Shown in pieces: positions 18,636 to 23,610 of a DNA stretch of 38,457 nucleotides. The DNA lies in the IMG/VR virus record IMGVR_UViG_3300025286_000049, positions 1 through 38,457 of that record; one strand, written 5' to 3'. The notes under the pieces were generated by a model. The model worked only from the letters and a program-made list of their open reading frames with translations. It searched no databases and was not told where the DNA came from. The position numbers and the translations under genes were made by a program. This stretch comes from a virus. Position 1 is the first letter of the stretch. Every line of letters begins with the position of its first letter.

Positions 18636-18641
18636 TTACAG

Positions 18642-18720
18642 TTGTTACGGTGTAACAAAGGGTGAAACACTCTCTCTTAAGATGTTGTTACACTCTTACT
18701 TTAGTAAGAGAGTGTAACAA
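18642..18720. repeat. TTGTTAC/GTAACAA inverted-repeat cluster (possible origin or operator)
   Basis: Four copies of TTGTTAC occur in two inverted pairs: 18642-18648 facing 18652-18658, and 18685-18691 facing 18714-18720. The second pair extends to a 37-base near-perfect palindrome (18685-18700 with 18703-18720). A purine-rich strand of AAGAGAG type follows to 18758. The place, right after the helicase-like ATPase and before the methyltransferase, fits iterons of an origin or binding sites of a dimeric regulator. It has no T-run after the large hairpin, so a terminator is less likely. Confidence 0.6.
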
Positions 18721-18795
18721 TAAGATAAAAGAAAGAGTAAGAGAGAGTACGAGAGAGGTTTGTTGTTGCAAGAGCGCATTGAGTTACGAGCTAGT

Positions 18796-18810
18796 GAGGT
18801 GACGAATGTG
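18796..18810 (+). promoter_or_regulatory. Single ribosome binding site serving two overlapping starts (ATGTG)
   Basis: GAGGTGA (18796-18802) is fully complementary to the usual anti-Shine-Dalgarno end. Three bases on is ATG (18806-18808) of one frame, and five bases on is GTG (18808-18810) of the methyltransferase frame; they share the base at 18808. Spacing favours the GTG, but either could be used. Confidence 0.6.
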
Positions 18811-19882
18811 GATACACGTACCCTCAACGTCCTGTCAATATGCAGCGGCGTCGCCGGTCTTGAATTGGGACTCCACGCAGCCCTGGGTGGCAGAACTCGC
18901 ACGGTCTGTTACGTGGAGAACGAACTCGGTGTCGCTGCGATCCTTGCAGCGCGTATGGGAGACGGTTCCCTCGATCCAGCGCCTATCTGGTCTGACATCA
19001 GAACCTTCGATCCAGGCCCGTGGAGTGGCCGAGTGGATATCCTCGCTGGGGGATTCCCGTGCCAGCCATTTTCGTTCGCCGGAAAGCGTCTCCAGGAGTC
19101 AGACTCCAGAAACCTCTGGCCTGCCGTCGCCCGAATCATCGACGGCATCAAGCCCGACAGAGTCTTCTTGGAGAATGTTACAGGCATCCTGCGGTATTAC
19201 CATGAACGAATTCGGAGAGACCTACGAGAGATGGGTTACGAGGTTGCGGAGGGCCTCTTCACAGCGGCAGAAACAGGCGCACCTCACAAGAGAGAGCGCC
19301 TCTTCATCCTGGCCCACGCCGAGCAGCGAGGGGTCAAAGGGGGAGATATCAGAGGACTTGGAGCGGAAGGGAGCGAAACTCTACAACAAGCAGACAGGAC
19401 GTATGCTACAGACCAACTTGGCGACAGAAACTCGGAACTGGCCCACGCCGAATGCGGGGCCACAGAACGACTCGGACACAACCTGGAAGGAACGCCGCCA
19501 GCGAATCAAGGAACAGGGGATCAACGGCAACGGATTCGGCCTGACGCTGGGGATGGCGGCATCCAACTGGCCCACGCCGACCACAGCGGACACGTTCACG
19601 AACAACCTGGAGTCGAGCCAGGTCAGAGAGGGGTCGATGCACAGCGTCACCCTGCCTCGGGCGGCGGGGAACTGGCCCACGCAGGACTCCCGCTCTATCC
19701 CCCAGGCCCCAACGACCACGCCGGATGGGCATACTTGCTCTCCGTCATGCCGCAGGCTCTCCCCACGTTTTGTCGAGATGCTGATGGGGCTCCCGCTGGG
19801 GTGGGTGATCAGCTCAGAGCACTTGGGAATGGCGTTGTACCAGCAGTGGGAAAGACGGCTTATCGAGAACTCAGCGAGATGA
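18806..19882 (+). CDS. Overlapping +1-frame protein with WPTP repeats (possible dual-coding partner of the methyltransferase)
   Basis: A 358-codon frame, shifted +1 relative to the methyltransferase. From about residue 165 on it does not look like noise: four SWPTP/NWPTP-type repeats (Trp169, 212, 255, 290), plausible helices between them, then CSPSCRRLSPRFVEMLMGLPL (318-330 onward, GW at 332) and QQWERRL near the end. From memory, WPTP repeats followed by LNPRFVEWLMGFP-GW are a recurrent C-terminal signature of many phage proteins annotated as cytosine methyltransferases. The same bases (CTGGCCCACGCC) give LAHA in one frame and WPTP in the other. The N-terminal half (SSLGDSRASHF over motif IV) is weaker. 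It may be a separate overprinted protein, an alternative C-terminus reached by frameshifting, or a conserved shadow. Confidence 0.45.
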   Translation: MWIHVPSTSCQYAAASPVLNWDSTQPWVAELARSVTWRTNSVSLRSLQRVWETVPSIQRLSGLTSEPSIQARGVAEWISSLGDSRASHFRSPESVSRSQTPETSGLPSPESSTASSPTESSWRMLQASCGITMNEFGETYERWVTRLRRASSQRQKQAHLTRESASSSWPTPSSEGSKGEISEDLERKGAKLYNKQTGRMLQTNLATETRNWPTPNAGPQNDSDTTWKERRQRIKEQGINGNGFGLTLGMAASNWPTPTTADTFTNNLESSQVREGSMHSVTLPRAAGNWPTQDSRSIPQAPTTTPDGHTCSPSCRRLSPRFVEMLMGLPLGWVISSEHLGMALYQQWERRLIENSAR

Positions 19883-19998
19883 TAGGAGGACTATGTTGCG
19901 ATGGGCATTCGCAGAACGCAAAAAAGGACCCCGTCCAGACCCTCGGATTGAGAGTCCAGACGGGGCCTGATTCTCCAGGGGGACGATATGGAACCTGA
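18808..19998 (+). CDS. C5 cytosine-specific DNA methyltransferase
   Basis: About 396 residues from GTG 18808; TTG starts near 18760-18768 would add up to 16. All key C5 methyltransferase motifs are present: motif I LSICSGVAGLELGL (residues 9-22), motif IV GGFPCQPFSFAGKR with catalytic Cys85, motif VI FLENV (121-125), motif VIII GAPHKRERLFIL (157-168) and motif X RALGNGVVPAVG (337-348). The target-recognition region has four LAHA-type repeats and then YPPGPNDHAGW, typical of phage Dcm proteins. It would methylate cytosine at C5, protecting phage DNA or altering regulation. No partner endonuclease is seen. The last ~25 residues beyond motif X are extra. Nearly the whole gene is covered by a second open frame (see next entry). 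Confidence 0.85.
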   Translation: MDTRTLNVLSICSGVAGLELGLHAALGGRTRTVCYVENELGVAAILAARMGDGSLDPAPIWSDIRTFDPGPWSGRVDILAGGFPCQPFSFAGKRLQESDSRNLWPAVARIIDGIKPDRVFLENVTGILRYYHERIRRDLREMGYEVAEGLFTAAETGAPHKRERLFILAHAEQRGVKGGDIRGLGAEGSETLQQADRTYATDQLGDRNSELAHAECGATERLGHNLEGTPPANQGTGDQRQRIRPDAGDGGIQLAHADHSGHVHEQPGVEPGQRGVDAQRHPASGGGELAHAGLPLYPPGPNDHAGWAYLLSVMPQALPTFCRDADGAPAGVGDQLRALGNGVVPAVGKTAYRELSEMIGGLCCDGHSQNAKKDPVQTLGLRVQTGPDSPGGRYGT

Positions 19999-22125: not shown

Positions 22126-23610
22126 TTATTTGTTCAGCAGCCGCCCCGTGGCCGGGGCGGTCGCCTGGGCGTCTGGCATCCGATACACGCCGGGATGCGA
22201 CGCCGAGATGTAGCGCCCGTGGGCCTGACGCTGTAGGGCCTGGACGCCCTCCGGATCAACTCGGGATACCGGGACTATGAACTCGGACGCCATCTCCAGG
22301 GTACATCCCATCCGATCCGAGATGTCCAGGCATTTCTCGATCTCCGCCCCCGTCCAGCCATCGTCATCGGGATGGTCGCCGGGGGTGTCCTCGTACACGT
22401 TCCAGATGGCGGCTCGCTCGTCCGCATCGGGCAGGTCGAAGTAGTACGTCCCGAGGCTGAAGCGCCGTCGGAGTGCCGGGGGCAGATTGGTGATCTTGTT
22501 GGACGTGGCGATGAACATGACCTCGCCAGCACCCACCGCCGTCACTACCTTGAGTGCGGCGCGTATGGTACGCTCCGCACCGCCCACCAGGCCGCCGCCA
22601 GCGGCCTTCAGCCCTCCCAGGTCGAGCTTGAGCGTGGGGATACCCGCCTCGTTGCCAGCGGCCTTGGCCATGACGCTCTTGGCCGCGCCGGGGGGACCAA
22701 CGAAGATCATCCCCGTGGCCTGGGTATCCTGCATGTACTCCAGCATCACGCCGAGGTAGTCCTGGCTCACCCCAGAGGAGTCATTGCCGCCCCCGCTGGC
22801 ACCCGCCATCGCCTTCTCGATCTCATCGATGAACACTATCGCCCTGGGTGCGCGTTTGCCTGCCAGGATGCGTCGGAGGAAGCCCTTTATGTTCTCGGCT
22901 CCGCCGATGCGGTCATAGGACTCCGCTCCGCGCCAGATCGTCAGGCCTGGGGTAGCGTCGATCATCTGCCGCTTTTTGTCCCAGAGCATCTCCAGGTCCA
23001 CGCCGTCCGGGGTCATGGACATCGCCGAGGCCTGATCGGCTGCGAATGCCGATAGCCCTGTCAGAGCCTCGGCGGCGGACTCCAGCCTGCCGTCTGGCTC
23101 CAGCCCCGCATCCTGGTGCGACTGTCGAACGATCTCACTCAGGGCCTGTACGTCCGGCAGGGGCTCGTCCATCACCAACACGTCCTGGTCAAGCTCCGCC
23201 GGGAGATCGATGGTGGGGGCGAGTAGGATCACCATCCGCCCCTGCGCCTTGGAGGGATCACGCACGTTCCATACGGCCTGGGAGATGGCCGGGTCATCGG
23301 CCAAGATACGATGCGCGTTCAAGACAAACAACGCCGTCCTGTCTGGCATTTTCCCAAGGAAGATCAGCGTGTCTATGAGACCGGCGGGGCCAACGGTCTC
23401 CACCTCTCCCGAGATCTCGCTCCAGGCGGCTGCCCCGGCAGCGCCCAGAGCCCTAGTGCCTCGGACGATATCCCATACGAGTATCGCCGTATCCCCGTTC
23501 ATCCATGTGCAACACGATGCCATCGTGGCCTGCGGATCTGCCGTCTGGATGGCCACCAGCGGGGTAGATACCCGCCGTGCGGCCCTGAACTGTGACTCTA
23601 TGCCTGTCAT
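22126..23610 (-). CDS. AAA+ ATPase, Ycf46-like, with Walker B placed before Walker A
   Basis: A 494-residue protein. The N-terminal ~220 residues resemble the lead domain of Ycf46-type ATPases (ALFVLNAHRIL at 93-103, VILLAPTIDLPAEL at 127-140, DKKRQMI at 211-217). Then come IGGAENIKGFL (235-245), IVFIDEIEKAMAG (258-270) with GVSQDYLGVMLEYM, and only afterwards MIFVGPPGAAKSVMAKAAG (301-319), LKLDLGGL, GGAERTIRAALK and the sensor-1 MFIATSNKITNLPPALRRRF (365-384). In ordinary AAA proteins the DEIEK block sits between the AERTIR helix and sensor 1; here that gap is missing and the block has moved forward. All catalytic pieces remain, so it is probably active as a remodelling ATPase. AGGAGG precedes the start. 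Confidence 0.75.
   Translation of the reverse strand: MTGIESQFRAARRVSTPLVAIQTADPQATMASCCTWMNGDTAILVWDIVRGTRALGAAGAAAWSEISGEVETVGPAGLIDTLIFLGKMPDRTALFVLNAHRILADDPAISQAVWNVRDPSKAQGRMVILLAPTIDLPAELDQDVLVMDEPLPDVQALSEIVRQSHQDAGLEPDGRLESAAEALTGLSAFAADQASAMSMTPDGVDLEMLWDKKRQMIDATPGLTIWRGAESYDRIGGAENIKGFLRRILAGKRAPRAIVFIDEIEKAMAGASGGGNDSSGVSQDYLGVMLEYMQDTQATGMIFVGPPGAAKSVMAKAAGNEAGIPTLKLDLGGLKAAGGGLVGGAERTIRAALKVVTAVGAGEVMFIATSNKITNLPPALRRRFSLGTYYFDLPDADERAAIWNVYEDTPGDHPDDDGWTGAEIEKCLDISDRMGCTLEMASEFIVPVSRVDPEGVQALQRQAHGRYISASHPGVYRMPDAQATAPATGRLLNK

What the first reader, a model, noticed from the sequence alone, without database searches (positions are those of the whole stretch)
18806..19882. C5 methyltransferase gene is double-coding: the +1 frame also carries methyltransferase-associated C-terminal motifs
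Seen: the methyltransferase frame has motifs I, IV, VI, VIII and X in one uninterrupted frame with LAHA-type repeats and YPPGPNDHAGW. The +1 frame is open for 358 codons over the same DNA and carries four WPTP/WPTQ repeats plus LSPRFVEMLMGLPLGW. The bases CTGGCCCACGCC encode LAHA in one frame and WPTP in the other. From memory, WPTP repeats with LNPRFVEWLMGFP-GW are a signature of many phage proteins annotated as methyltransferases. Inference: either two proteins are overprinted, or a frameshift gives an alternative target-recognition domain and hence a switch in sequence specificity, or a database family is a conserved shadow of the other.
Basis: partly seen in the sequence, partly recalled or inferred. 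Interest (0 to 1): 0.85.

Follow-up and report, generated by a model that had tools for sequence, protein, structure and literature searches.

The report
Phage methyltransferase hidden in two frames
One stretch of phage DNA encodes two overlapping proteins that look like the two halves of a single DNA-methylating enzyme, one with the catalytic core and one with the part that reads the target sequence, and the same layout recurs in many relatives.

Summary
Window 18808-19998 (frame 0) encodes a C5-cytosine methyltransferase with motifs I, IV, VI, VIII and X but no motif IX. Nested in it, 18806-19882 (+1) is open for 358 codons and carries four WPTP/WPTQ modules and LSPRFVEMLMGLPLGW, which is the missing motif IX. 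The +1 frame is not a shadow: across 80 loci it has 50 stops where 380 are expected, substitutions between motifs VIII and IX peak at its third codon position, and window module 2 has a homologue encoded in frame 0 of a single-chain methyltransferase (L336). Best reading: two proteins, alpha (catalytic core plus X) and beta (target-recognition modules plus IX), which pair into one enzyme. Their starts, ATG and GTG, overlap in 80 of 137 nonredundant loci, window included. The arrangement is known from one restriction-modification enzyme, M.EcoHK31I; here it is a broad phage family that varies in where motif X sits and in the number and exchange of modules. At least two phage records already annotate the nested gene. 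Translation of beta, pairing with alpha and target sequences are inferred, not shown. New variant of a known kind.

The parts
18808..19998 (+). alpha gene: C5-cytosine methyltransferase catalytic subunit (motifs I-VIII and X), GTG start, 396 aa; an upstream in-frame TTG at 18760 is also possible
   Evidence: ORF; PF00145 E 8.2e-34, phrog_363 E 5.1e-53; AlphaFold2 mean pLDDT 78-98 per ten residues over residues 1-170; Foldseek to M.HhaI E 8.5e-15 over 175 columns
18806..19882 (+). beta gene nested in +1 frame: target-recognition modules plus motif IX, 358 aa, ATG start
   Evidence: ORF; phrog_1008 E 3.2e-18; selection on this frame in relatives; hhalign of the beta family to the motif IX of in-frame phage enzymes E 5.1e-8
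18796..18810 (+). shared start region: GAGGTGA (18796-18802), then ATGTG with the beta ATG (18806) and alpha GTG (18808) overlapping by one base
   Evidence: sequence; NTGTGG start with beta open to IX in 80 of 137 nonredundant loci, window included; in 42 of those 80 the overlapping GTG is the only possible alpha start, the window is not among the 42
18832..18864 (+). motif I in alpha (LSICSGVAGLE)
   Evidence: read by eye
19048..19074 (+). motif IV in alpha (GGFPCQPFS, catalytic Cys)
   Evidence: read by eye
19171..19179 (+). motif VI in alpha (ENV)
   Evidence: read by eye
19273..19305 (+). motif VIII in alpha (TGAPHKRERLF)
   Evidence: read by eye
19310..19438 (+). beta module 1 (WPTPSSEG...)
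   Evidence: module search hits 3 modules of overprinted loci
19439..19567 (+). beta module 2 (WPTPNAGPQNDSDTTWKERR...NGNGFGLTL); homologous to an in-frame module of the single-chain enzyme L336
   Evidence: 47.6% over 42 aa, E 5.1e-9; frame 0 in L336, +1 in the window
19568..19672 (+). beta module 3 (WPTPTTADTFTNNLESSQVREGSMHSVTLP); shared with Lacticaseibacillus phages and others
   Evidence: +1 identity 23 of 30 against 7 of 30 in frame 0 versus L005
19673..19750 (+). fourth beta repeat (WPTQ...) leading into motif IX
19751..19804 (+). motif IX in beta (RRLSPRFVEMLMGLPLGW)
19813..19842 (+). motif X in alpha (LRALGNGVVP)
   Evidence: alpha model residues 341-360 at pLDDT 90-92, the first residues of the motif lower

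Best explanation
The locus makes one C5-cytosine DNA methyltransferase as two proteins from the same DNA. Alpha (frame 0) is the SAM-binding catalytic domain, motifs I-VIII, plus the C-terminal motif X helix; what it has between VIII and X is largely a disordered spacer. Beta (+1 frame) carries the variable target-recognition region, here a string of WPTP modules, and motif IX, that is, the small domain that alpha lacks. Each is started from its own codon; in the window these are probably ATG (beta) and GTG (alpha), overlapping behind one ribosome-binding site. Alpha and beta then assemble into an active enzyme which probably methylates phage DNA against host restriction. Shown here by sequence: both frames under selection in relatives, and the identity of the +1 frame as module region plus motif IX. 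Inferred: translation of beta, assembly, activity, target sequence and biological role.
For: (1) Motif IX is in +1, not in frame 0: 86 of 89 IMG/VR loci fetched by the alpha frame with full-length alpha (1 in frame 0, 2 none; 13 short or truncated loci and 3 without a motif IV match set aside); a wider count is, and after removing loci fetched twice 91 of 95. (2) Stops: 80 nonredundant loci (window and alpha-retrieved IMG/VR, chosen as having IX in +1) have 50 stops in +1 against 380.3 expected from synonymous shuffles, in +2 1110 against 1132.5; 61 in-frame enzymes: 394 against 461.7. (3) Substitutions in 53 disjoint pairs: in VIII..IX the alpha positions 1/2/3 change at .283/.128/.133 with amino acid identity .656 (frame 0).789 (+1).635 (+2); flanking genes .140/.124/.397 and .803/.536/.538; in-frame enzymes over the same region .234/.143/.315, identity .700/.609/.530. 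(4) Window module 2 is homologous to a frame-0 module of L336; 38 module pairs (at least 60% over 28 aa) link in-frame and overprinted loci whose alpha domains are under 42% identical. (5) The beta family aligns to the motif IX block of in-frame phage enzymes. (6) AlphaFold2 of alpha is confident for I-VIII and most of X and below pLDDT 50 over residues 175-289 and 320-337, which lie under beta's modules and most of IX (and over the tail 361-395). (7) Beta was found without alpha only once in 160 loci fetched by beta (L091, at a contig end). (8) Naturally split and fragment-complementing C5 enzymes exist (PMC3404938, passages).
Against: No expression, proteomic or activity data. The beta model is poor (pLDDT 57.4, pTM 0.27), so its fold and contact with alpha are untested. 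In the window alone the openness is weak evidence, and its +2 frame is as low against its own expectation. Over motifs I-VIII the extra conservation of +1 is moderate (.63-.69 against .536 in flanking genes and .575 in the same domain of in-frame enzymes), and absent for 90 bases from motif IV on (.54); in the window's own clade it is slight (.476 against .456 for +2). That WPTP modules are target-recognition domains rests on position, homology and exchange, not on a solved structure. A published summary places the predicted recognition domain of M.EcoHK31I in alpha, not beta. Some loci do not fit: L050 (IX frame 0), L258 (IX +2), L095 (no IX).
Confidence: 0.85

Rival explanations
1. Programmed frameshifting: ribosomes start in alpha, shift +1 after motif VIII to read the recognition modules and motif IX, then shift back for motif X, making one chain.
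For: The IX frame is +1 in nearly all overprinted loci, never +2 except in the irregular L258. In a second class of relatives (26 loci, 'B') modules, IX and X all lie in +1, so one +1 shift would give a full enzyme.
Against: In the window two opposite shifts would be needed. Beta has its own recurrent start: NTGTGG in 80 of 137 nonredundant loci, and an SD-like motif upstream in 53 of 80 against 0.21 in shuffled upstream sequence. The +1 frame upstream of motif IV is more conserved (.665 and .685) than in flanking genes (.536) or in in-frame enzymes over I-VIII (.575), which a shift after VIII would not explain. Slippery sites were not searched for.
Confidence: 0.08
2. Shadow: the +1 frame is open only because of GC-rich composition and conservation of frame 0, and the database family is a mis-annotated reading.
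For: GC of the tested stretch of the window is 61%; window-only stop test is modest. Phage records annotate either frame: Ssp-JY39 the +1 frame, Yong-M2-251, with identical ORF translations, frame 0.
Against: +1 stops 50 against 380 expected; substitutions peak at beta's third position between VIII and IX; homology between the +1 frame of the window and frame 0 of L336; module 3 is 23 of 30 identical in +1 against 7 of 30 in frame 0 versus L005.
Confidence: 0.02
3. Beta is a separate translated protein with some other role (for example a regulator or anti-restriction factor), and alpha works alone.
For: Beta has a recurrent N-terminal part (MW..P...) overlying alpha's motif I region, of unknown role; alpha keeps motif X.
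Against: Alpha has no motif IX and no confidently modelled recognition domain, and beta has a motif IX and modules like those of in-frame enzymes. Beta was found without alpha in 1 of 160 loci, at a contig end.
Confidence: 0.05

Closest known systems
M.EcoHK31I (and, recalled, M.EaeI): naturally two-polypeptide C5 methyltransferase
   Same: Two polypeptides; motifs I-VIII and X in the larger, motif IX in the smaller (PMC3404938, passages). That beta lies inside alpha in another frame and that both are needed is recalled; [quoted passage not shown]
   Different: The summary places the predicted recognition domain in the larger subunit; here the stretch between VIII and IX is selected in beta. 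Here beta carries repeated modules, often starts at an ATG overlapping alpha's GTG, and the arrangement is spread over well over a hundred nonredundant phage and genome loci. Sequence homology to M.EcoHK31I was not tested (no sequence at hand).
M.AquI: C5 methyltransferase split in the variable region
   Same: Large subunit I-VIII, small subunit with part of the recognition region and IX-X; class B relatives (26 loci, 12 inspected) look like this but with the two ORFs overlapping.
   Different: In the window motif X is in alpha, not in beta, and the overlap is nearly complete.
Single-chain phage C5 methyltransferases (Mycobacterium phage Tweety gp72, JoeyJr gp71, Gordonia phage Gudmit gp58, Rothia phage Spartoi gp40)
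   Same: Same motifs, (L/M)PTP modules and EWMM-type motif IX.
   Different: IX and X in frame 0 together with at least one module.
Multispecific Bacillus phage C5 methyltransferases with tandem target-recognition domains (recalled)
   Same: Several recognition modules in a row in the variable region.
   Different: There in one frame; here in a nested +1 gene. Multispecificity here is a guess.

Membership tests
C5-cytosine methyltransferase (PF00145) | motifs I, IV (PCQ), VI (ENV), VIII and X | tested here: met
   frame 0, E 8.2e-34; motifs aligned with relatives
C5-cytosine methyltransferase (PF00145) | recognition region and motif IX in the same chain | tested here: not met
   IX lies in +1; alpha below pLDDT 50 there
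M.EcoHK31I-type two-polypeptide enzyme | motif IX in a second polypeptide, I-VIII and X in the first | tested here: met
   as reading frames; definition; polypeptides themselves not shown
M.EcoHK31I-type two-polypeptide enzyme | second ORF inside the first in another frame (recalled) | tested here: met
   18806-19882 inside 18760-19998
M.EcoHK31I-type two-polypeptide enzyme | recognition domain in the larger subunit (as summarised in PMC3404938) | tested here: not met
   selection between VIII and IX is on the +1 frame
M.EcoHK31I-type two-polypeptide enzyme | both polypeptides needed for activity | not testable with these tools
   needs expression and a methylation assay
M.EcoHK31I-type two-polypeptide enzyme | sequence homology to M.EcoHK31I | not tested
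   its sequence was not at hand
M.AquI-type split enzyme | motif X in the small subunit with IX | tested here: not met
   window X is in frame 0; met in 26 class B relatives
phrog_1008 | profile match of the +1 protein | tested here: met
   E 3.2e-18; 61 of 61 members of the beta alignment match
Multispecific C5 methyltransferase with tandem recognition domains | several exchangeable recognition modules in tandem | tested here: inconclusive
   pattern count of TP repeats 0-8 per locus; 167 module pairs at least 60% identical over 28 aa between loci with alpha under 42% identical, 38 of them between in-frame and overprinted loci
Multispecific C5 methyltransferase with tandem recognition domains | more than one target sequence methylated | not testable with these tools
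   needs methylome sequencing

The most novel reading that the evidence does not exclude
A large and old branch of phage C5 methyltransferases has moved its specificity part into a nested +1 gene. The +1 frame then evolves as a cassette of exchangeable recognition modules (0 to 8 per locus by pattern count, shared between distantly related enzymes and between frames), while the overlying spacer of the catalytic subunit is free to drift. The state with motif X in alpha, the state with X in beta and the single-chain state interconvert by small shifts of frame; in single-chain mycobacteriophage relatives the +1 modules may still be used to give a second specificity.
Probability: 0.25. Interest if true: 0.85.

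Novelty: new variant of a known kind. Interest (0 to 1): 0.72.

Why it matters
Phage methyltransferases are used to explain escape from restriction, but of 20 hand-picked cultured phage records with motif IX in +1, 17 annotate one frame only (11 alpha, 6 beta) and 3 annotate both, so half of the enzyme is often missing from the protein lists. [quoted passage not shown] whether their enzymes are of this type was not tested here. As an overlapping-gene case it is long, same-strand and found in distant phages, and single-chain relatives that keep similar modules in frame 0 give an outside check on what the nested frame encodes. It also offers natural split C5 methyltransferases, which are sought for targeted methylation (PMC3404938, PMC3439449, PMC4014571, passages).

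Tried and rejected
Rejected: shadow reading; pure composition effect; decayed single-chain gene (both frames are conserved over large divergence). Matches of the beta profile to MS2-type coat proteins in the PDB (best E 8.1e-5) were judged compositional: the best domain has E 0.8 and the stretch is a short TxPSxxxxGVxxWISS likeness. The structure of beta was too poor for a fold search, so none was run. A single-protein scan with the +1 protein found no confirmed relative among 39 pattern matches; the alignment scan did. The first motif X pattern was wrong and was replaced. A first module count (248 pairs) took a missing alpha comparison as 0% and was replaced (167 pairs). Not tried: search for slippery sites, homology to the M.EcoHK31I sequence, rooting of the tree (one search is midpoint-rooted, quick method, 85 of 199 inner branches under 80).

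Results against the reading: window-only stop test modest, with +2 equally low; the N-terminal half of +1 only weakly constrained in the window's clade; L050, L258, L095 irregular; single-chain enzymes also have slightly low +1 stops (394 against 461.7) and some +1 conservation between VIII and IX (.609); after motif IX, +1 identity is .600, still above flanking genes. One of the 16 flanking control stretches (L121/L134) shows its peak at position 2 and is probably mis-framed; it was kept. Several IMG/VR contigs were fetched twice; the counts include them, one search gives counts without them.

Literature: ten searches listed no paper that describes this phage family as dual-coded, as far as titles, abstract starts and the passages I opened show; only open-licence papers are held, so this is weak. 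A related but different case, an out-of-frame HNH gene inserted in a phage methylase, is PMC11855218 (abstract and passages).

Full report
WHAT IS THERE. Frame 0 of window 18760-19998 and the +1 frame 18806-19882 are both open. Frame 0 is a C5-cytosine methyltransferase: PF00145 E 8.2e-34, phrog_363 E 5.1e-53. Pfam covers only profile positions 2-192; motif X (LRALGNGVVP) follows at the end; no motif IX is in this frame. The +1 protein matches phrog_1008, 'DNA methyltransferase', E 3.2e-18, and weakly (E 0.2) PF00145 positions 222-305, a part that frame 0 lacks. The window is a virus record. Of 20 other ORFs scanned, matches include terminase, head, exonuclease, primase/helicase-like and RusA families; the locus lies between the primase/helicase-like gene and RusA.

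RELATIVES. I fetched IMG/VR loci by the frame-0 protein and its alignment (25, 80), by the +1 alignment (80), by single-chain enzymes (80), GTDB genome loci by the +1 alignment (80), and 24 hand-picked cultured phage regions. The scans keep the best 80 matches only. With a motif IX profile, 86 of 89 full-length alpha-retrieved loci have IX in +1, 1 in frame 0 (L030), 2 none; 13 short or truncated ones and 3 without a motif IV match were set aside. A second count with a wider profile gives IX in +1 for 101 of 105 alpha-retrieved (1 frame 0, 3 none), 76 of 80 beta-retrieved (1 frame 0, 2 none, 1 without alpha), 77 of 80 GTDB (1 in +2, 2 none), 14 of 18 cultured phages (4 frame 0), and in frame 0 for 55 of 80 fetched by single-chain enzymes (23 in +1, 1 broken, 1 none). 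Without loci fetched twice (first fetch kept), +1 counts are 91 of 95, 75 of 78, 75 of 78, 13 of 17 and 23 of 79. The other six cultured phages all have IX in +1. With whole-beta and alpha profiles, beta overlaps alpha in +1 in 105 of 105, 79 of 80, 80 of 80 and 16 of 18 (the odd IMG/VR one, L091, is at a contig end; L030 counts as +1 there although its motif IX is in frame 0; Tweety and Gudmit count as +1 there although their motif IX is in frame 0).

IS THE +1 FRAME CODING? Three tests. Stops: 137 nonredundant loci chosen as having IX in +1 have 72 +1 stops against 643.6 expected from synonymous shuffles; the 80 of these that are the window or alpha-retrieved have 50 against 380.3, 56 of them none at all, with +2 at 1110 against 1132.5. 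The comparison set of 61 single-chain enzymes has 394 against 461.7. Substitutions: in 53 disjoint pairs the stretch between VIII and IX changes most at alpha position 1, which is beta position 3 (.283/.128/.133), and amino acid identity is .789 in +1 against .656 in frame 0. Flanking genes (16 stretches) and single-chain enzymes (24 pairs) change most at position 3 of frame 0. Over motifs I-VIII alpha dominates, but the +1 frame is more conserved (.63-.69) than in flanking genes (.536) or the same domain of single-chain enzymes (.575), except for 90 bases from motif IV on (.54). After motif IX the pattern is mainly that of alpha (.183/.110/.330; +1 identity .600). Window against six clade members: identity between VIII and IX .605 in +1.493 in frame 0.433 in +2. 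Homology: window module 2, in +1, aligns with a frame-0 module of the single-chain enzyme L336 (47.6% over 42 aa, E 5.1e-9; alpha domains 37.3%), and module 3 is 23 of 30 identical in +1, 7 of 30 in frame 0, to the Lacticaseibacillus phage R9.1 locus L005. A by-product of frame 0 cannot give the first of these.

WHAT THE +1 PROTEIN IS. The beta family aligns with the single-chain enzymes at motif IX (E 5.1e-8, probability 94.8), alpha at I-VIII (E 1.2e-52). In the five single-chain enzymes aligned, IX (EWMM...) and the GNGV motif X follow VIII in one frame, in four of them with a PTP module before IX. AlphaFold2 of alpha (61 sequences) is confident over I-VIII and most of X and below 50 over 175-289, 320-337 and 361-395; Foldseek finds M.HhaI over 175 columns of a 327-residue chain. 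The beta model is poor.

START. The beta ATG (18806) and alpha GTG (18808) overlap behind GAGGTGA. NTGTGG with beta open to IX is found in 80 of 137 nonredundant loci. That GTG occurs at +2 is automatic; but in 42 of the 80 it is the only possible alpha start (not in the window, which has an upstream TTG). An SD-like motif lies upstream in 53 of 80 against 0.21 in shuffled sequence. In the other 57 no such start was found; in L004 the beta frame opens only about 150 bases inside the annotated alpha gene.

CLASSES AND HISTORY. A: all in one frame. B: modules, IX and X in +1 (26 loci; in the 12 inspected the stop-to-stop beta frame overlaps alpha by about 180-760 bases). C: as in the window. In a quick midpoint-rooted tree of 202 alpha domains the classes need 8 changes against a shuffled mean of 50.8, which fits old, fairly stable states with occasional switches. 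Direction is not settled.

KNOWN OR NOT. M.EcoHK31I is described as two polypeptides with motif IX alone in the smaller (PMC3404938, passages); the original paper is not held. Recalled: its beta ORF is nested in alpha. So the kind is known. New here, as far as ten searches of open papers show: its breadth in phages, that the recognition part is in beta, module arrays, classes B and C, and the overlapping start. Records differ in what they annotate: both genes in K1H and Diva, +1 only in Ssp-JY39 and frame 0 only in Yong-M2-251, whose ORF translations are identical.

VERDICT. A real, conserved pair of overlapping genes, best read as a two-subunit methyltransferase. Function is inferred.

Noticed in passing
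window 18684-18721: Inverted repeat upstream of the alpha/beta start; 18640-18830 folds at -55.2 kcal/mol, z -3.59, 0 of 200 shuffles as low. Possible terminator or control element.
   Followed up: partly
L198 2824-3222 and L199 1472-2068: Single-chain mycobacteriophage enzymes (Tweety gp72, JoeyJr gp71) also hold in +1 a beta-like N part (ETLPTSGMTRSGSLLPLP) and PTP/PSP modules, while another module, IX and X are in frame 0. Whether the +1 modules are used is unknown.
   Followed up: partly
L050 2406-3713, L258 225-1936, L095 2490-3342: Irregular loci: L050 has its first modules in +1, its last ones and IX in frame 0 and X in +2; L258 has IX in +2 and X in +1 (each as if the frame shifted once); L095 has a beta without a recognisable motif IX. 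Sequencing error or real not decided.
   Followed up: partly
L014 2303-3811: Alpha frame is broken by a stop between VIII and X while beta stays open for 452 codons stop to stop.
   Followed up: no
L366 813-1637 and L368 717-1769: Existing annotations of the nested gene: K1H ORF28 'putative Mte8-like protein' and Diva gp50 'g49 internal gene'.
   Followed up: yes
window 22126-23610 minus strand: 494-aa ORF on the opposite strand matching phrog_8638 (unknown function, E 1.4e-34) and an ATPase family (E 1.2e-10).
   Followed up: no
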